Assembly (NCBI RefSeq): GCF_001983955.1
Contig: NZ_CP019562.1
Coordinates: 1,364,001 to 1,428,000 of the forward strand
Direction of reading: 5' to 3'
DNA: 64,000 bases
Source: Streptococcus oralis
GTDB lineage: Bacteria; Bacillota; Bacilli; Lactobacillales; Streptococcaceae
A program made the position numbers and the translations under genes. A model generated the notes under the pieces. That model ran no database searches. It saw nothing but the letters and a program-made list of their open reading frames with translations, and was not told where the DNA came from. How positions within the stretch are numbered: the stretch's first letter is position 1; each line of letters begins with the position of its first letter. Of the stretch, positions 7,878 through 29,224 are shown piece after piece.

Positions 7878-10800
7878 TCAAGTGCTGGCTTCAGAAATTC
7901 CCAAAATTTCACGAATTTCTGCCAGACTGAGACTGGCACGCGACTCCGTACCATCTAAAACTTGGGAAACCAAATGTTTCTTTTGTTCTTGAAGTTCTTG
8001 GATTTTTTCTTCAATGGTTCCCTTGGTAATCAAACGATAGACCTCGACCATCTGCTCCTGCCCCATGCGGTGGGCTCGTCCGATAGCCTGGGCTTCGACA
8101 GCGGGATTCCACCAGAGGTCAACCAAAATAACCGTATCAGCTCCCGTTAGATTAAGACCGACACCTCCTGCCTTCAGAGAGATGAGAAAGGCGTCTCTTT
8201 CTCCCTGATTAAAGGCCTTGGTCATCTCCTGTCTGTCTTGAGCAGGAGTTGAACCTGTGATTTTAAAGGAAGTCAAGCCCAAGTCTGGGAGTTCTTTCTC
8301 GATTTTTTCCAACATTCCTTTGAACTGGGAGAAAATCAAGACCCGATGCCCACCATCAGCCACTTGTAGCAATAAATCTCGGAGACTATCCAATTTACCA
8401 CTAGCTCCTTGGTAATCGTTCATGAAGAGGGCTGGCGTATCGCAGATCTGGCGCAATCGCATGAGACCAGATAAGATTTCCACCCGACTTCTCTGGAATT
8501 CTTGATCTGTCACTTGGGCTAGACGGTCTCGCATCTGTTGCAACTGGGCGAGATAGATGGCCTTCTGCTGGTCTTCCAGTTCATTTTTATAGACAACTTC
8601 GATCAGATCAGGTAGTTCTGTTAGGACTTCTTCTTTCTTACGCCTCATGACGAAGGGCTTGATAAACTGCGCTACTCGGTCAGCCGGTAATTTCATAAAC
8701 TCCTTTTTACTTGGTAAGAGCCCTGGAAGCACAATTTGGAAGATAGACCACAACTCTCCTAAATGATTTTCGATGGGCGTACCTGACAAAGCAAAGACTG
8801 CCGGCACCACAAACTGGCGCAAACTCTGAGCAATCTTAGTCTGAGCATTTTTCATGACCTGGGCCTCATCTAAAAAGAGAAAATCAAAGGACTTCTCTTG
8901 ATAGAGCTCGCTATCTTGACGAAAGCTCGCATAGCTAGTCACATAGATTTGATGATTTTCGGAAAGAATCACTTCTCGATTCGCTTTCAAACCATGAACA
9001 ACAGCTAAATCCAATTGTGGTGCGAATTTCCTGAATTCATCTGCCCAGTTGTAGATCAAACCTGACGGCGCCAAAATCAAGACACGACTATCCTCTGTTA
9101 CCTGACTTGTCAAAAAAGCAATGGTTTGCAGCGTTTTTCCCAACCCCATATCATCTGCCAAGATGCCTCCAAAGCCATAGTGATGAAGCATCTGGAGCCA
9201 ACGGACTCCCTTTTCCTGATAGTCTCTCAAGCTCGCCTGCACCCGTATATCTCCCAAAGGAAAGTCCTCTGGATGGGTCAAATCATGAGCTAAATGCTGA
9301 AATTCCTCTGAGAAGGAAATCCTGTCTCGACCTTCAAAAAGCTGAGAAAGGCTATAAGCTAGAGATTTTCGAGCTTGAAAAGAACCATCTTTTAGCTCAA
9401 CTCCCAGTTCCTGCAAATTTTGACGAATCTGCTTGGTTTCCTCATCAAAAAAGTACACTTGGTCAGAAGAACTGATATAGAAATCCTGATTGCTGGTCAG
9501 GGCTTTAAGAGCTTGATCAATCTCTTCTTGGGCAATCCCTTGGAAATCAAACTGAATCTCCAACAGTCCTCCCTTGGACTCAATCTGAACCTGAGGAGCT
9601 TGGACGCTGTAGAGCTGATTCATCTCATCAGACAAGAAAACCTGACCCAACTTCTCAAAAGCTGGAATCGTATGGTGAAAGAAAGAATAAACTGCCTCTG
9701 GCTTCAAAGCCTGTCTCCAAGACTGAAAATCAGCCTCAAAACCAGCCCCTAAACAGACTTGAAATAGCTGATTTTCCAAGACAGCATCGCTTGAAAATGG
9801 TAATTGTTCCAGCTGTTGCTGACTAGTCACCTTAAGATCTCCATAATCAAACTCGATATCCAAACGAATGCGACCGTCATCCTCCCTATCAAAGTAAAAG
9901 ATTGGTGAAAAGGGTCTGATTTGCAAGCGCTCAGGAGCAGAAACTGTGCCCAGCTGTCCAAACAAAGGCAGACAGGCAGCCAGACGGTCACGATCACTGT
10001 TGTCAAACTGGAGGCATTTTCTCCCTCTTTCCTCCTGAGGAAGCTCCTTGATTTCCTTTAGGAGGCTGATTTGTTTAGGATTTAAGAGATAAAGATTCCC
10101 CTTACGAAAGAGAACCGCTCCCCCATAGAATACGTTGATTCGCTCACTTTCAGAAATCTCCATCTCAAAATAATCGGGATACTCCTGCACTGAAAAAGAG
10201 AAAAGTTCTGCATCGGGATCTAAATCATGAAAGAGAAGATTTTCATAACTAGTAATCTGGTGTTCGAAATGAAAATCTTCCAAGTTCATCAATAACCCCA
10301 CTCCCTGCTCAAAAAAGGTCAGAGGGAAAAAGAGGTGACGACCTTGATTGGGGAAAAAGAGCTCTTGACTCAGTCCCTCCTCAATCAAGCCACATAAAAA
10401 AGTAAGAACATCTTGACTAGCTGTATCAAAAGACTCCCAAGACAAGTCATTTTCATAGTATTTCCCAATCATGTATGGCTTTCGATGGACTAAGACCTTC
10501 AAAAAGAGAGGGATGTCACGAATGACATAATATTTTTGACTATCAACTAAACCGATTCGGAGTGTCCAAAGGAGGCGATTGGTCCCAGCTTCCACCTGAC
10601 CTTGAGCCGACAAAGTGTAGATTTTCTCTCTCTTCTGAGGTTGGATACGCTCCAAAAAACTACCGCCAAAACTAACCTTGGTTTCGACCTCTTCTTGCTC
10701 TTCATGTCCTTTTTCTAAGGCTTGTAAAATCACCTGGCCTTCTTCATCATTCTTCAGATAATGCTCGAGCGCTGCTAGGTGAACACAGTAACCTCTTTTT

Positions 10801-24325: not shown

Positions 24326-24357
24326 ATCAAAAAGAGGGCCAGAAAAACTAGCCCTCC
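24326..24357 (-). terminator. Intrinsic terminator ending the exopolysaccharide-type operon
   Basis: A 9-bp stem (24334-24342 with 24348-24356), an AAAAA loop, and TTTTTG downstream on the minus strand. It marks the 3' end of the five-gene operon that starts at 28866. Confidence 0.85.
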
Positions 24358-24366
24358 CTTTTCATT

Positions 24367-25470
24367 CTAGAACATCTCTAGAGCAATCATGGTAATCATC
24401 GTTGCATCATAGTAGTTGTCCAAAGGTAAATCTTGTGTGAAAATGTATTTATTTTGCTGAAGAAGTTTCAGATAGCCTTCTCCCTTGTCAGACGCGTAGG
24501 TAATCGGTGCCAAGAAACTACCTGCCTGGTATTGATTGAGGGCCGTTCCGTTCAAGTCATAACCAGCATAAATGCGTTGCTCTTTCATAAAGAAATCCAT
24601 CATCTTTTGAACGAGTTTTTGGCTTCTTTCATCCTGGCTCTGTGACAAGTGATAAGGCAAACGACAAGCGTTATAAGAATACGCTCCATCGTATTGAGAT
24701 TCGATAGTATTGGCATCAACAAGATGTGCCCCTGACTTCTCAGCCCAGATAAAGTCTGGCAAGAGACCCGTATCAGAATGAGAACTGATTTGCTCTAGTT
24801 GGCCAAGCATCTTATCCTTAACATCTAACCACTGTTTATTTCCAGTCAGGTCATAGAAAGATTGGAAATAGTGAGGTAAGGTGTCAGAAGTCCGCATCAA
24901 GTAATAATAATCGGAATCCTTGTTCGCCCAGTTCCCTACTGTTAGGACACCTGTCTCTTCATTATAATTGTATTTAAGGATATCATCCAATATTTTTTTA
25001 GCTTGCGCTTGGTATTCCTGTGCTTTATCAGGCCACTGCTTGGCAGCTTCAATCAAAGAATAAGCGATGTAGAGATCCCCATCAGTTGCGTTCTGCTTCT
25101 CAACCGTTTCACTACCATTTGTGATCACTTGCTTCCAAGACATCAACTGCGTTCCCTCAATACGATGATTTTGATAATAGCGATAAAGGTTATCAAAATC
25201 TGCTTGACTTGCTTGCCCTTTTTGGGCTGCTAAAACCGTTATGAGCATGCCGTAACTTTGGGCCTCTGATAGAACCGTTGTTTCCTCAGAATCATCCGTC
25301 GTACGAACATAAGACTGATCGCCTTTTGTAACAAGGAACTGTTGGCTCCATTGGCTGTAAATTCGATTACGCATTTCGATTTTAGTCCTTCCTCTTGCTA
25401 AAAACAAGGCTAAACAAAAGATAGAAAGGATGAGCACAAACCAGACATATTTTAATTTATTCGTTTTCAT
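24367..25470 (-). CDS. Membrane-anchored glycoside hydrolase family 8 glycanase
   Basis: An N-terminal signal anchor (about residues 8-26) precedes an extracellular GH8 domain. Visible GH8 motifs are SEAQSYGM, with the general-acid Glu (E69), and NATDGDLYIAYSL with the conserved Asp (D130, D132). Where many GH8 enzymes have an Asp in a YDA-R-P motif, this one has SYNACRLP (N267), pointing to a GH8 subfamily with a different base or to altered activity. GH8 enzymes of the BcsZ/PssZ type trim polymer made by an adjacent synthase. Last gene of the operon, eight bases after the glycosyltransferase. Ribosome binding site AGGAGG. Confidence 0.88.
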   Translation of the reverse strand: MKTNKLKYVWFVLILSIFCLALFLARGRTKIEMRNRIYSQWSQQFLVTKGDQSYVRTTDDSEETTVLSEAQSYGMLITVLAAQKGQASQADFDNLYRYYQNHRIEGTQLMSWKQVITNGSETVEKQNATDGDLYIAYSLIEAAKQWPDKAQEYQAQAKKILDDILKYNYNEETGVLTVGNWANKDSDYYYLMRTSDTLPHYFQSFYDLTGNKQWLDVKDKMLGQLEQISSHSDTGLLPDFIWAEKSGAHLVDANTIESQYDGAYSYNACRLPYHLSQSQDERSQKLVQKMMDFFMKEQRIYAGYDLNGTALNQYQAGSFLAPITYASDKGEGYLKLLQQNKYIFTQDLPLDNYYDATMITMIALEMF

Positions 25471-25478
25471 AGAACCTC

Positions 25479-26789
25479 CTATCCTGCAAATCGCTTGGTT
25501 TTAACCCACTTGGTTTCTTTTCTTCGGAGTACCTTGTCTAGAACGATTGAAGAAATGGAATCAATGGAAACAACGATAAACATCTGTGCATAAGTGAAAT
25601 AGGCAGCCAAGGCCAACCAGATTTGCTTTGTAGTAGCTTGTCCAAATTGACTTGCCAATGCTGTCATAATTTGCATCAGATAAAGACCAATCATGAGAAT
25701 CCAGTTGAAGAGCATGAGCTGGGCGATGTAGATATTGTCCGCATCAAAAGCAAATGGAACCCTGACATCTGGGAAGAAAAGATTAAGACAGATCGCTAGC
25801 ACATTCGCTAGGAAAATCAAATCCGATAGGACAATGGCAAAGTTAAACCAAAAGAAAACACATGAATAGTTAAAGACTTCTAGTTTAACGCGCCAGTTTG
25901 CTCTGCCAAATAGATGCTTAAAGTTTGAGAGAACAACTTCGTAATTTCCTTTTGCCCAGCGTTTCCGTTGCATATAGTAACTCTTTAAGGTCTCAGGTTC
26001 TTGTTGGAAAGCCTCTGAATTATAGGCAAGGGCAATCAATTTACCACTCTGCATGATTTTGAAGGAAATATCGGTATCCTCAGTTAAGGCACCATTTTTC
26101 CAACCCCCGATGCTCTTTACAAAGTCGGTTTGAATGATAAAGTTGGTTCCTGGAATACGCCCAATTTTAAAGAGATGCCACATTCCAACGTGGTGCACGC
26201 GCTGAGTAACAACGATTTCCTGGTTGATACAACGAGTCAAGAAATTTTGATTGGCATTTCGAGTCTTGTTGCGACCAAAAGATGCCACATGACGTTCTGG
26301 ATCCTTCATCACTTCTTTGACAAGGAAATAAAGGGCATTTTTTTCAGGCATGGCATCCGCATCATAAACACAGATGTATTCACCTGTTGCCATCTCCAAA
26401 GCATCATTTAGAACGCCCGCTTTTCCTCCCGTACCAGTACGGTCGATAATGGTTAGATTTCTTCCTGCATATTCAGGCATGGCTTGTACAGACAAACATT
26501 CTGCATAGGTGTTATCCGAACAGTTATCCGCAAATAAGAGCAACTCCACACGGTCGTGAGGATAGTTCATATCCAAGATAGCTTTTGCCGTCTGCGCAAT
26601 AACTACATCCTCATTATGTGCAGGAACAACAATGGTGACCTTAGGATAATAAGGTAGCGGCGAAGTGTCTACACGAAAATCACTGTGTTTAAACCAAAAG
26701 TGTACTGCCGAAAAGAGAATTACCAAGCCCCATGCTAGAGAAATCCAAATTGTAAGCAAGGTAAAAATCATTAACATTTGACTAATCAT
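25479..26789 (-). CDS. Processive family 2 glycosyltransferase (exopolysaccharide synthase, PgaC/BcsA type)
   Basis: A membrane GT2 synthase of 436 residues. One helix at about residues 8-30 precedes the catalytic domain: LFADNCSD (D88), YDADAM (DxD, D143/D145), LTEDTD (E237/D238) and QRKRW (Q274, R277, W278). These are the full set of a processive synthase that polymerises and extrudes a beta-linked glycan. Several C-terminal helices (about 305-415) form the channel part. No PilZ domain is fused. The start overlaps the end of the 46-residue membrane peptide by eight bases. With the 2-epimerase upstream, UDP-ManNAc or UDP-GlcNAc is a plausible substrate; the polymer is not known. Confidence 0.92.
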   Translation of the reverse strand: MISQMLMIFTLLTIWISLAWGLVILFSAVHFWFKHSDFRVDTSPLPYYPKVTIVVPAHNEDVVIAQTAKAILDMNYPHDRVELLLFADNCSDNTYAECLSVQAMPEYAGRNLTIIDRTGTGGKAGVLNDALEMATGEYICVYDADAMPEKNALYFLVKEVMKDPERHVASFGRNKTRNANQNFLTRCINQEIVVTQRVHHVGMWHLFKIGRIPGTNFIIQTDFVKSIGGWKNGALTEDTDISFKIMQSGKLIALAYNSEAFQQEPETLKSYYMQRKRWAKGNYEVVLSNFKHLFGRANWRVKLEVFNYSCVFFWFNFAIVLSDLIFLANVLAICLNLFFPDVRVPFAFDADNIYIAQLMLFNWILMIGLYLMQIMTALASQFGQATTKQIWLALAAYFTYAQMFIVVSIDSISSIVLDKVLRRKETKWVKTKRFAG

Positions 26790-26922
26790 GATTCACCGCC
26801 TTAAAATTTTTGTTTACTCGGTGGTAAAGAATATTGTATGCAATAAATAGTATGATAAAACAAATGCCAAAGACGAGACTGAGTCCCAAAGCAATACCAA
26901 AAAATAGTTCGGTTAAAGTCAT
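26782..26922 (-). CDS. 46-residue membrane peptide within the exopolysaccharide operon
   Basis: Reading from an ATG at 26922 gives MTLTELFFGIALGLSLVFGI and continues as one long hydrophobic helix (about residues 6-31), then a basic end (YHRVNKNFKAVNHD). A strong ribosome binding site (AGGAGGG) lies five bases upstream. It starts nine bases after the degenerate GGDEF gene and overlaps the glycosyltransferase start by eight bases. This tight packing and good translation signal make it very likely real. I do not recognise a family. Small single-helix subunits accompany other synthases (compare PgaD-type partners), so an accessory synthase subunit is a reasonable inference. Confidence 0.82.
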   Translation of the reverse strand: MTLTELFFGIALGLSLVFGICFIILFIAYNILYHRVNKNFKAVNHD

Positions 26923-26931
26923 GTTTCCCTC

Positions 26932-27711
26932 CTAATATTCTACAATTACATCTGTCTCTAGTTGACGTTTGAGATGACTGGCGACATCCGCGTAGTCTTG
27001 GTATTTATCTTTATTATCAGAATTAATCACCAAATAGCCTGTTTGAAACTGAATTCCTTGATTGCCATCTTCTCCGTGAAAAACTAAACTGCTCAGTTTC
27101 TCCTGCAAACCATTCAAATAAAGTTTCTTCAAAGAATGTTGGTTAGTACTCGATAGAACGAGAAAATTACCATCCGAAACGTAATAGAGCTTATCATTGT
27201 AACTCAATTCCTGAGCAATTTCCTCTTGAATACGACTGAGCATCTGGTTATGTTCTTTTGGTTTAATCTGGAAGAACAAATCTTCATGTGCCCAATGAAT
27301 CAATAGAGATTGAACCGTAAAATCACTTTGTTCAGCGACCATAGCTTGGTAATCTGCTCGAGCTGCGTCTTCCTGTTCTTGGACCTTTGAGGCCACCTTG
27401 AAGAAATAATAACGAACCTTAAGTAGAATCCCAATCAAAAGAGGAAAACTGATTAATAAGAAGATCAGTTGCATGATTGGGATGTAAACCACACCCGCAA
27501 CCAAAACGATAAGTCCAAAACCAAATGCTAAGATAAGAGTCCAAGTAAGCAAAAGGTCAGATAATACCAACACGGCAAACAAGGCTAAAGCCAAAAACAA
27601 GATTTGTTCTAAAATGATTGCTCGAGCATACAAAAAACAAAGCACCAAAAGAATGACCTCACAAGCAAGCAAAGCCATAAGCCAGTTTTTAAATTGACTC
27701 CAATTTTTCAT
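26932..27711 (-). CDS. Four-TM protein with degenerate GGDEF-like domain (PelD/PssE-like)
   Basis: Four membrane helices lie within about residues 8-102, then a coiled linker (KVQEQEDAARADYQ) and a C-terminal domain of about 125 residues with GGDEF-fold spacing. The signature reads DKLYYVSDGNFLVLSS: SDGNF occupies the GGDEF position. The inhibitory-site RxxD, five residues before, reads SYND, so the Arg is lost. It should be catalytically dead and may not bind c-di-GMP. Architecture and context match receptors of synthase-dependent polysaccharide systems such as PelD and Listeria PssE. The assignment is by fold pattern, not alignment. It sits between the epimerase (6 bases) and the membrane peptide (9 bases). 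Confidence 0.78.
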   Translation of the reverse strand: MKNWSQFKNWLMALLACEVILLVLCFLYARAIILEQILFLALALFAVLVLSDLLLTWTLILAFGFGLIVLVAGVVYIPIMQLIFLLISFPLLIGILLKVRYYFFKVASKVQEQEDAARADYQAMVAEQSDFTVQSLLIHWAHEDLFFQIKPKEHNQMLSRIQEEIAQELSYNDKLYYVSDGNFLVLSSTNQHSLKKLYLNGLQEKLSSLVFHGEDGNQGIQFQTGYLVINSDNKDKYQDYADVASHLKRQLETDVIVEY

Positions 27712-27717
27712 TTTATC

Positions 27718-28866
27718 TTATTTCCCCCCTTTGAATTCAGATACAGAAGTCGCTGCCCCAAAGAACTGTTGAATGGATTGTACGATTCGTTCAGAGGCTC
27801 TTCCATCTCCATAAGGATTTGGTGCCTGAGACATTTGTCTATAAAGAGTTTCATCTGTTAAGAGTGCTGCCATCGCTTCTTTCACACGTACTGGATCCGT
27901 ACCAACTAGCTTCAACGTACCTGCTCTTACTCCTTCTGGACGTTCCGTCGTGTCACGAAGGACAAGGACAGGTTTGCCGAGAGAAGGCGCCTCTTCTTGA
28001 ACACCTCCAGAGTCAGTCATGATAAAATAGCTTCTTGAAGCCAAATTATGAAAATCAAGTACATCTAAAGGCTCGATCAAGTGAATACGATCGTGACCAG
28101 ATAAGATATCTTTTGCTGCTTCTTGCACAGCAGGGCTAAGGTGAACAGGATAAACAACTTCAATTTCCTGATGAAGATCGACCATCTCACGTAAAGCTGC
28201 AAAGACATTTCTCATTGGTTGACCTTGATTCTCACGACGATGCATGGTTACCAATACAAGTTTCTTATCTGGATCCAATTGATCTAGAACTTCATGATAG
28301 TAATCCGATTGAACGGTTAGTTTCAAGGCATCAATGGCTGTATTTCCCGTAATGACAATAGCAGACTCAGGATGATTTTCCTTGAGGAGATTTTCTTTAC
28401 TCTCACTAGTTGGAGCAAAATAAAGATCCGCTAAGTTATCAGTCATCTGACGATTCATTTCTTCTGGGAAAGGAGAATACTTATCAAAGGTCCTTAGACC
28501 AGCTTCAACGTGGCCGATACGTACCTGATTATAGAAAGCAACTAAACTTGCTGCAAAAGTTGTTGTTGTATCTCCATGAACAAGAATTATATCTGGAAGT
28601 TCTTGCTTAACAACTGGATCAAACTTTTCTAAAATTTTTCCAGTAATATCTAAGAGGGATTGATTTTTCCCCATAATATCCAGATCATAATGTGGCTCGA
28701 TGCTAAAAGTTTCAAGAACTTGATCTAGCATTTGGCGATGCTGAGCTGTCACAACTGTGATCGTCTCAATGCTGTCACTATGTTTTTGCAATTCTAACAC
28801 TAAAGGGGCCATTTTAATAGCTTCTGGTCGTGTTCCAAAAACAACCATCACTTTCAGTTTCTTCAT
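27718..28866 (-). CDS. UDP-N-acetylglucosamine 2-epimerase (non-hydrolysing, WecB/MnaA-like)
   Basis: Interconverts UDP-GlcNAc and UDP-ManNAc in the cytoplasm. Length 382 is normal. Motifs: VFGTRPEAIKMAPL at the N-terminus, LVHGDTTTT, VEAGLRT, PFPEEMNRQMTD, TMHRRENQG with the catalytic His, TDSGGVQEEAPSLGKP and TTERPEG binding the nucleotide. First gene of the five-gene operon. Ribosome binding site AAGGA. Its place here suggests the operon needs UDP-ManNAc, for the polymer itself or for its side groups. A housekeeping copy elsewhere cannot be excluded. Confidence 0.94.
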   Translation of the reverse strand: MKKLKVMVVFGTRPEAIKMAPLVLELQKHSDSIETITVVTAQHRQMLDQVLETFSIEPHYDLDIMGKNQSLLDITGKILEKFDPVVKQELPDIILVHGDTTTTFAASLVAFYNQVRIGHVEAGLRTFDKYSPFPEEMNRQMTDNLADLYFAPTSESKENLLKENHPESAIVITGNTAIDALKLTVQSDYYHEVLDQLDPDKKLVLVTMHRRENQGQPMRNVFAALREMVDLHQEIEVVYPVHLSPAVQEAAKDILSGHDRIHLIEPLDVLDFHNLASRSYFIMTDSGGVQEEAPSLGKPVLVLRDTTERPEGVRAGTLKLVGTDPVRVKEAMAALLTDETLYRQMSQAPNPYGDGRASERIVQSIQQFFGAATSVSEFKGGK

Positions 28867-28932: not shown

Positions 28933-29224
28933 TTTCAATTAATTTGACTTTCATAATTATTTTACCGTCAATTTATTTATATGTCAAATTTTTTCCAAAT
29001 TATATTATTTCATTTCATTTAATTTTAACATTCTGTAACTTTTTTTGTAATGATATCGTTTACAACTAAAAATAGCCCATTTCCCGATATATTTCAGATT
29101 TTTTTCAGAAAATACGACAATACACAAACTATTATTTATATGTCTTGTTGTATATTTATATTTGTATTGATATTTCAAACAATTATATTCTACCACTTTG
29201 AGGAATAAATCAAACAATTTCAAA
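28933..29224. other. A+T-rich intergenic stretch upstream of the exopolysaccharide operon
   Basis: Part of the 436-base gap between the epimerase and the next acetyltransferase. It is very A+T rich. The only long frame uses a TTG start, has no ribosome binding site and resembles no protein. I see no repeat or RNA structure here. It could carry regulatory sites for the operon. Confidence 0.5.

What the first reader, a model, noticed from the sequence alone, without database searches (positions are those of the whole stretch)
24367..28866. Five-gene synthase-dependent exopolysaccharide operon in a streptococcus
Seen: an operon with gaps of 10 bases or less or overlaps holds a UDP-GlcNAc 2-epimerase, a four-TM degenerate GGDEF protein, a 46-residue membrane peptide, a processive GT2 with the complete D, DxD, TED, QxxRW set, and a GH8 glycanase with a signal anchor, ended by a terminator. 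Known: this parts list (synthase, glycanase, degenerate GGDEF receptor) is that of Listeria Pss and of Pel/Bcs-type systems; Listeria Pss makes a ManNAc-based polymer. Inference: it makes a cell-surface or secreted ManNAc- or GlcNAc-based glycan. Most streptococcal capsules are Wzy-dependent, so this would be a separate route. I do not recall it at this locus in pneumococcus, where the HAD-cyclophilin gene adjoins rpsR.
Basis: partly seen in the sequence, partly recalled or inferred. Interest (0 to 1): 0.85.

Follow-up and report, generated by a model that had tools for sequence, protein, structure and literature searches.

The report
Hidden sugar-polymer operon in oral streptococci
Many mouth streptococci carry a conserved five-gene machine that very probably makes and exports a surface sugar polymer, related to a Listeria polymer system but with other parts and with a control protein that no longer matches the usual bacterial signal, so these bacteria may make a biofilm sugar that has been overlooked.

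Summary
In detail: five tight genes (2-epimerase, four-TM degenerate GGDEF protein, 46-aa membrane peptide, processive GT2, GH8 glycanase) with a promoter-like site and a terminator hairpin. It is not local. The GGDEF-like protein occurs in 64 of 284 Streptococcus genomes; an operon-type epimerase occurs in exactly those 64; all five genes were detected in 61 of the 63 other loci. A four-gene core, mostly without the epimerase, occurs in other Lactobacillales and on plasmids. The GGDEF relation is invisible from streptococcal sequences alone but clear through distant orthologues. The streptococcal proteins lack motif and RxxD, and 62 of the 64 genomes, this one included, have no recognisable GGDEF domain, so c-di-GMP control is unlikely. 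It is related to Listeria Pss (GT2 34%; PssE homologous) but is not a Pss operon: PssA, PssB and BcsB are not in it, while the small peptide, GH8 and epimerase are. A ManNAc-containing polymer is the best guess, not shown. The S. mutans copy appears to be the CovR-regulated epsC locus, whose deletion weakens early sucrose biofilms; that paper discussed epsC as cell-wall/surface gene. New variant of a known kind.

The parts
28959..28987 (-). promoter-like site (TTGACA, 17 nt, TAAAAT), 92 bases before the first gene
   Evidence: 11 of 12 consensus matches; 25 promoter-like sites found in the stretch against 14.5 expected in shuffles, so weak by itself
27718..28866 (-). non-hydrolysing UDP-GlcNAc 2-epimerase (makes UDP-ManNAc)
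   Evidence: TIGR00236 520.6 bits, cut-off 210.15; the only match in this genome at E<=0.001; operon-type epimerase in exactly the 64 operon genomes of 284
26932..27711 (-). four-TM protein with a degenerate, shortened GGDEF-like cytoplasmic domain (SDGNF at the GGDEF place, no RxxD)
   Evidence: one continuous hydrophobic block at residues 6-104, read by eye as four helices
26782..26922 (-). 46-aa single-TM peptide with a conserved FKAV-type tail; probable synthase subunit
   Evidence: found in 63 of 63 streptococcal loci L063-L125; overlaps the GT2 start by 8 bases in 52 of 57 complete loci
25479..26789 (-). processive family-2 glycosyltransferase, the polymer synthase
   Evidence: one N-terminal and several C-terminal hydrophobic stretches
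24367..25470 (-). GH8 glycanase with N-terminal signal anchor; invariant E69, D130, D132, D196, D239, D261
   Evidence: PF01270 108.5 bits; best solved relatives 5xd0 (glucanase) and chitosanases 7cju, 1v5c; residues fixed in 81 of 81 members of 330 aa or more
24329..24361 (-). intrinsic terminator hairpin after the glycanase gene
   Evidence: -21.2 kcal/mol, 0 of 200 shuffles as stable

Best explanation
A synthase-dependent exopolysaccharide operon. The epimerase supplies UDP-ManNAc; the membrane GT2, held with the 46-residue peptide, polymerises an amino sugar on the cytoplasmic side and threads the chain through itself; the anchored GH8 trims or releases the chain outside. The four-TM GGDEF-like protein descends from the same stock as the c-di-GMP receptor PssE but in streptococci no longer senses c-di-GMP; it stays as a subunit or as receptor for something else, and output is set largely by transcription (CovR in S. 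mutans). Shown: gene content, conservation, catalytic residues, homologies, absence of GGDEF and EAL matches in this genome. Inferred: polymer identity (ManNAc-containing, perhaps 55%), role of the peptide, extracellular trimming, scaffold role.
For: GT2 residues fixed in 81 of 82; five genes in order in 61 of 63 streptococcal loci; the four core genes found in 21 of 25 non-streptococcal loci. Operon-type epimerase in exactly the 64 GGDEF-like genomes of 284; an epimerase at other operon positions in L166 and L171 and on a L. sakei plasmid; an epimerase somewhere in 25 of 25 non-streptococcal operon genomes against 21 of 30 others. Closest studied synthase compared is Listeria PssC, 33.9%; its polymer is beta-1,4-ManNAc with galactose (PMC6307706, passage). 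GH8 has Asn in 81 of 81 where cellulase CelA has Asp. No GGDEF or EAL match in the genome; RxxD/E absent in 65 of 65 streptococcal proteins. S. mutans epsC deletion: fewer microcolonies, loosely attached 8 h biofilm, more eDNA (PMC3595261, passages).
Against: No polymer has been seen. The glycanase's best solved relatives are a glucanase and chitosanases, not ManNAc-ases. Non-streptococcal relatives mostly lack an epimerase in the operon (2 of 25 have one), so the polymer may differ. The 25/25 against 21/30 contrast is not corrected for relatedness. R-x-x-D/E elsewhere (16 of 25) does not track the presence of diguanylate cyclases, so 'lost together with c-di-GMP' is not shown. Two of the 64 genomes do have a GGDEF protein. 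Three of 63 streptococcal loci have a split GT2 and one a fragmentary GH8, and L056 is decayed. In S. mutans the 18 h biofilm mass was unchanged, autolysis rose slightly, and the phenotype could be a cell-wall effect; VicR is named as regulator in some data. The GT2 tree leaves our rows unresolved in part. No structure could be predicted.
Confidence: 0.68

Rival explanations
1. A true member of the c-di-GMP-regulated Listeria Pss system.
For: GT2 33.9% identity to PssC; PssE homologous to the GGDEF-like family (40.9 bits; soluble part alone 25.4 bits, best null 11.0; TM part alone gave no match).
Against: No BcsB or DUF2334 gene in the operon; extra peptide, GH8 and epimerase; PssC sits in a six-row set (97/100) that excludes all our rows; no GGDEF or EAL match in the genome; no RxxD.
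Confidence: 0.06
2. A poly-beta-1,6-GlcNAc (Pga/Ica-like) operon with the small peptide in the role of PgaD/IcaD.
For: Best NCBIfam match of the GT2 is PgaC_IcaA (129.9 bits); small membrane partner.
Against: Far below that model's cut-off (422.3); 25% identity to E. coli PgaC; no deacetylase in the operon; an epimerase is not needed for PNAG.
Confidence: 0.12
3. A cellulose or mixed-linkage glucan operon (Bcs-like) with BcsZ-type glycanase.
For: GH8 present; GT2 profile matches BcsA structures; the best solved relative of the GH8 is labelled glucanase.
Against: 26% identity to BcsA; no BcsB gene and no PilZ match; BcsZ model 67.2 bits against a cut-off of 299; Asn at CelA's Asp position in 81 of 81; epimerase unexplained.
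Confidence: 0.1
4. The epimerase serves teichoic-acid attachment or the cell wall (a role named for epsC in S. mutans) and the other genes are unrelated neighbours.
For: Discussed in PMC3595261 (passages).
Against: Operon-type epimerase in exactly the 64 operon genomes and in no other of 284; the 31 other epimerase-bearing genomes carry a 55-59% identical type; same order in 61 of 63 loci.
Confidence: 0.06

Closest known systems
Listeria monocytogenes Pss operon (pssA-E, lmo0527-0531; PMC4125290, passages)
   Same: processive GT2 (33.9% identity) and a membrane protein with degenerate GGDEF (PssE) that is homologous
   Different: Pss has PssA, a DUF2334 PssB, BcsB-type PssD and a c-di-GMP-binding PssE; its glycosidase PssZ is placed in GH126 by CAZy (PMC7479077, passages) and is not in the stretch read; ours has epimerase, small peptide and GH8 and no known c-di-GMP partner
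Lactobacillus acidophilus gts operon (gtsA, gtsB, pdeB; PMC6123363, passages)
   Same: BcsA/PgaC-like GT2, a small two-TM partner and a degenerate c-di-GMP-type protein in one operon
   Different: the receptor there is a degenerate EAL protein; GH8 is not mentioned in the text (0 occurrences), epimerase not looked for; sequences not compared here
Streptococcus mutans epsC locus SMU.1437c-1434c (PMC3595261, passages)
   Same: very probably the same operon: epimerase gene first, SMU_1434c listed as glycosyltransferase (PMC9513430, passage); genome G140, taken as S. mutans, has the five genes and one epimerase
   Different: discussed as a cell-wall/surface gene, not as part of a polymer synthase system, in the passages read; locus tags not compared
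Gram-positive Pel (PMC7112168) and S. intermedius Pel (PMC12345266), passages
   Same: biofilm polymer operon; streptococcal PelD lacks the GGDEF domain, so control is c-di-GMP-free there too
   Different: Pel is made with PelF and PelG beside PelD, PelE and PelA parts; none of these gene families was matched by our five genes

Membership tests
Synthase-dependent exopolysaccharide systems | single membrane GT2 with D, DxD, TED, QxxRW and TM helices | tested here: met
   (81 of 82)
Synthase-dependent exopolysaccharide systems | polymer made and exported | not testable with these tools
   no wet-lab data; only the S. mutans epsC mutant phenotype in print
Listeria Pss | operon holds PssB (DUF2334) and PssD (BcsB) | tested here: not met
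   the five window genes match no such domain; Listeria locus, its Pfam matches. PssA has no Pfam match, so its absence rests on gene content alone; elsewhere in the genome not searched
Listeria Pss | GT2 belongs with PssC | tested here: not met
   PssC pairs with an E. faecalis GT2 (100/99) inside a six-row set (97/100) without our rows; 34% identity. 8 of 18 inner branches are open and long branches are flagged
Listeria Pss | PssE homologue present | tested here: met
c-di-GMP receptors of PssE/PelD type | RxxD I-site before the GGDEF place | tested here: not met
   0 of 65 streptococcal proteins
c-di-GMP receptors of PssE/PelD type | c-di-GMP made in the cell | tested here: not met
   no PF00990 or PF00563 match in this genome; PF00990 in 2 of the 64 operon genomes; EAL searched in this genome only, HD-GYP nowhere
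GGDEF superfamily | homology of the soluble domain | tested here: met
   family profile (31 rows) against real GGDEF domains 97.2%, E 4e-11; 19-row A1 13.1%; 17 streptococcal rows alone 3.2%; L180 and L184, 2 of 10 distant members scanned, pass PF00990
Pga/Ica PNAG synthases | GT2 passes PgaC_IcaA cut-off | tested here: not met
   129.9 bits, cut-off 422.3
GH8 with CelA-type Asp base | Asp in the YDAxR position | tested here: not met
   Asn in 81 of 81; that this Asp is CelA's base is recalled
GH8 chitosanase type (loop Glu base) | loop Glu aligned with 1v5c | tested here: inconclusive
   E257 in the window but Glu in only 43 of 81; D261 fixed instead; the role of that Glu in 1v5c is recalled
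Pel | PelF and PelG | tested here: not met
   no Pel model among the Pfam and NCBIfam matches up to E 1 of the five proteins

The most novel reading that the evidence does not exclude
A widespread, undescribed matrix polysaccharide of dental-plaque streptococci, probably ManNAc-containing, is made by a synthase complex whose ancestral c-di-GMP receptor has been kept after c-di-GMP was lost and re-used as a structural subunit or as sensor of another ligand.
Probability: 0.4. Interest if true: 0.77.

Novelty: new variant of a known kind. Interest (0 to 1): 0.62.

Why it matters
Oral streptococcal matrix work centres on sucrose glucans, Wzy capsules (recalled) and lately Pel (PMC12345266, passages). 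An operon present in 64 of 284 Streptococcus genomes held, including S. oralis, S. sanguinis, S. parasanguinis and very probably S. mutans, would be a further, sucrose-independent route to a surface polymer. It would give the S. mutans epsC phenotype a direct explanation and offer a natural case of a c-di-GMP receptor relative outliving its signal.

Tried and rejected
Rejected: 'Listeria Pss member' (gene content); 'BcsZ-like cellulase' (Asn at the CelA Asp position); 'chitosanase-type catalytic Glu' for E257 (written so in my note; one search then showed Glu in only 43 of 81, so withdrawn); 'I-site retention follows c-di-GMP' (R-x-x-D/E in 16 of 25 non-streptococcal proteins; genomes of groups g9 and g11 with it gave either no PF00990 match or one of 23.5-28.4 bits in a 650-688 aa frame, GdpP-like by recall, while L184 and L185 lack it and their genomes have matches of 119-126 bits). 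A profile search of the PDB with the GGDEF-like family found nothing up to E 1. Paper searches without a useful paper; the listings were capped (20 of 3,442 and 12 of 236 papers seen).

Dropped rows. From the survey: L001-L034, short stretches of genomes fetched again in longer form or at named loci. From: G428 (E 9.7e-4, one stop inside) was not fetched; the other 23 of 24 non-streptococcal hits were. From the residue counts: named loci L035-L062 except L054 and L057 (many repeat the G genomes), GT2 under 400 aa, GH8 under 330 aa, GGDEF-like under 170 aa. From alignment A1: L039, L040, L043, L045, L049, L052, L055 and the second DD12 copy. The best 'null' ORF lies directly before a GT2 relative (L060), so it may be a true distant relative.
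Full report
The window carries five minus-strand genes exactly as described. They are spaced by 6, 9, -8 and 8 bases, preceded by a promoter-like site at 28987-28959 and closed by a stable hairpin at 24329-24361.

The operon is widespread. The GGDEF-like protein was found in 64 of 284 Streptococcus genomes. I fetched the 63 loci other than the window and searched them for all five genes: 61 of 63 gave all five in the same order and 57 of 63 gave five full-length single ORFs. Of the six others, L091 ends with its contig, L078 has an overlong GT2 frame and no GH8 (cause not looked into), L092, L099 and L116 have a split GT2, and L115 a fragmentary GH8. Named loci with the operon include S. oralis, S. 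parasanguinis, S. sanguinis, S. australis, S. rubneri (GT2 incomplete), S. vestibularis, S. ferus, S. ratti, S. orisasini and S. hyointestinalis. The small peptide was detected in 63 of 63 and overlaps the synthase start by 8 bases in 52 of 57 complete loci, which suggests coupled translation. Thirteen of the 63 loci share the rpsR and HAD-cyclophilin flanks; the others do not show both flanks within the stretch fetched.

Outside streptococci, a profile search of 395 Lactobacillales genomes found 41 with a match, 24 of them outside the genus. I fetched 23 of those 24 (G428 left out), and with the two Liquorilactobacillus loci that makes 25. All four core genes were detected in 21 of 25, in a few of them with a shortened or split gene (L168, L170, L177); the exceptions are decayed (L165), cut by a contig end (L171), broken (L179) or without a detected peptide (L180). 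The epimerase is mostly not in the operon there: it lies downstream of the glycanase in L166, upstream in L171, and after the glycanase on a Latilactobacillus sakei plasmid (the GGDEF-like gene and peptide of that plasmid were not verified). Eight L. plantarum plasmid records hold the synthase at 63.0-63.7% identity; the one opened has GT2 and GH8 annotated, transposase and recombinase genes near by, and an open 47-aa peptide frame before the GT2.

Epimerase linkage. In Streptococcus, 95 of 284 genomes have an epimerase at E<=1e-60; the 64 closest (61-100% identity) are exactly the 64 genomes with the GGDEF-like protein, and the other 31 carry only a 55-59% type. This genome has one epimerase match. 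Outside streptococci, 25 of 25 operon genomes have an epimerase somewhere against 21 of 30 others (the 30 are handles taken as operon-negative because one search did not list them as matches, and relatedness is not corrected). This makes UDP-ManNAc a likely substrate, which is inference.

The GGDEF-like protein. The window protein has no Pfam GGDEF match, and a profile of 17 streptococcal rows fails against real GGDEF domains (3.2%; 13.1% with the two Liquorilactobacillus rows). A 31-row profile with distant orthologues reaches 97.2%, E 4e-11 over 144 columns, and 2 of 10 distant members scanned pass the Pfam cut-off themselves (L180, L184). The streptococcal rows aligned lack the stretch that aligns with the first helix motif and have SDGNF or similar at the GGDEF place; 0 of 65 have R-x-x-D/E in front of it, against 16 of 25 non-streptococcal ones. 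The C-terminal ETDxxVEY-type tail is nearly fixed. Listeria PssE is a homologue: 40.9 bits against the whole-family model, where the best non-family ORF of 17,580 scores 10.2, and 25.4 bits against the soluble part alone, best null 11.0; the TM part alone gave no match. This genome has neither GGDEF nor EAL matches; PF00990 is over its cut-off in 14 of 284 streptococcal genomes, 2 of them among the 64.

Synthase and glycanase. The GT2 catalytic residues are fixed in 81 of 82 members. Among the rows identity to the window is 55-84% within the family, 34.3% to an E. faecalis GT2, 33.9% to Listeria PssC, 25% to PgaC and 26% to BcsA. The tree puts PssC and five others in a set apart (97/100), but 8 of 18 inner branches are open and PgaC, BcsA and Acinetobacter are flagged as long. 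The glycanase is GH8, closest among solved structures to 5xd0 and to chitosanases. The Asp of CelA in this region is Asn in 81 of 81, and D261 in the inserted loop is fixed in 81 of 81, so a base other than CelA's is likely; that is inference.

Link to published work. PMC3595261 (passages only) reports an operon-like locus SMU.1437c-1434c in S. mutans with epsC as a UDP-GlcNAc 2-epimerase gene. CovR binds its promoter and epsC rises 2.6-fold in a covR mutant; SMU.1434c-1437c were also listed as down-regulated in the vicK mutant, although the paper calls epsC regulated by CovR only, and PMC4528225 (passage) names vicR under heat stress. The epsC mutant gave smooth colonies, fewer microcolonies, loosely attached and reduced 8 h sucrose biofilm, more extracellular DNA and slightly more late autolysis; mureinolytic activity and 18 h biofilm mass were not significantly changed. 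PMC9513430 (passage) lists SMU_1434c as a glycosyltransferase. Genome G140, identified as S. mutans only by a recalled species primer, has the five-gene operon (L119) and a single epimerase. I therefore read epsC as the first gene of this operon; the locus tags themselves were not compared. None of my ten paper searches listed a paper whose title or abstract start describes this operon as a polymer synthase system; some listings were capped, and the library holds open-licence PMC papers only. A review of the dental plaque matrix (PMC9413593, passages) speaks of the synthase-dependent pathway for PNAG and, in the passages seen, of no streptococcal one.

Verdict. A real, conserved operon for a synthase-dependent exopolysaccharide, related to but distinct from Listeria Pss, with an epimerase tied to it in streptococci and a GGDEF-like partner that very probably does not sense c-di-GMP. 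Polymer identity is open.

Noticed in passing
L203:1293-7435; by ORF lengths and first residues also L204, L205, L207: A second, unrelated system in some streptococci: a PAS-GGDEF protein with intact GGDEF motif, a GtrA-type GT2, a BcsA-like synthase with a PilZ domain (TIGR03030 340.1 bits, below its 699.1 cut-off) and a 617-651 aa protein without Pfam match (Pfam run on L203 only). In L203, L205 and L207 it lies between trmB-like and rimP-like genes (names by eye). This goes against the statement that streptococci lack c-di-GMP pathways (PMC4125290, passage). L206 has the GGDEF gene without the synthase.
   Followed up: partly
14 of 284 Streptococcus genomes: PF00990 GGDEF domains over the curated cut-off in 14 genomes of a genus usually said to have none.
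   Followed up: partly
L102 (contig length of Streptococcus sp. DD12), ORF ending at 9809: A second, diverged GGDEF-like family member (20% identity to the window protein) downstream of the glycanase.
   Followed up: no
L035 (S. oralis DD24): Synthase 99% but GGDEF-like protein only 75% identical to the window: the operon looks mosaic by recombination.
   Followed up: no
L056 (Streptococcus sp. Marseille-Q5986): Decayed operon: GT2 and GH8 in pieces, epimerase and GGDEF-like gene not found, rpsR and HAD-cyclophilin flanks kept.
   Followed up: no
L201 (Acinetobacter baumannii record) and L198 (Enterococcus faecalis record): Pss-like clusters: GT2 with BcsB beside a divergent 2-epimerase gene in Acinetobacter; GT2 with a PssE-like protein (27.9 bits) in E. 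faecalis. Both records are labelled plasmids.
   Followed up: partly
L037 (S. sinensis HKU4, 10.6 kb contig): Operon with GT2 97% identical to the window on a short contig of another species: recent transfer or contamination.
   Followed up: no
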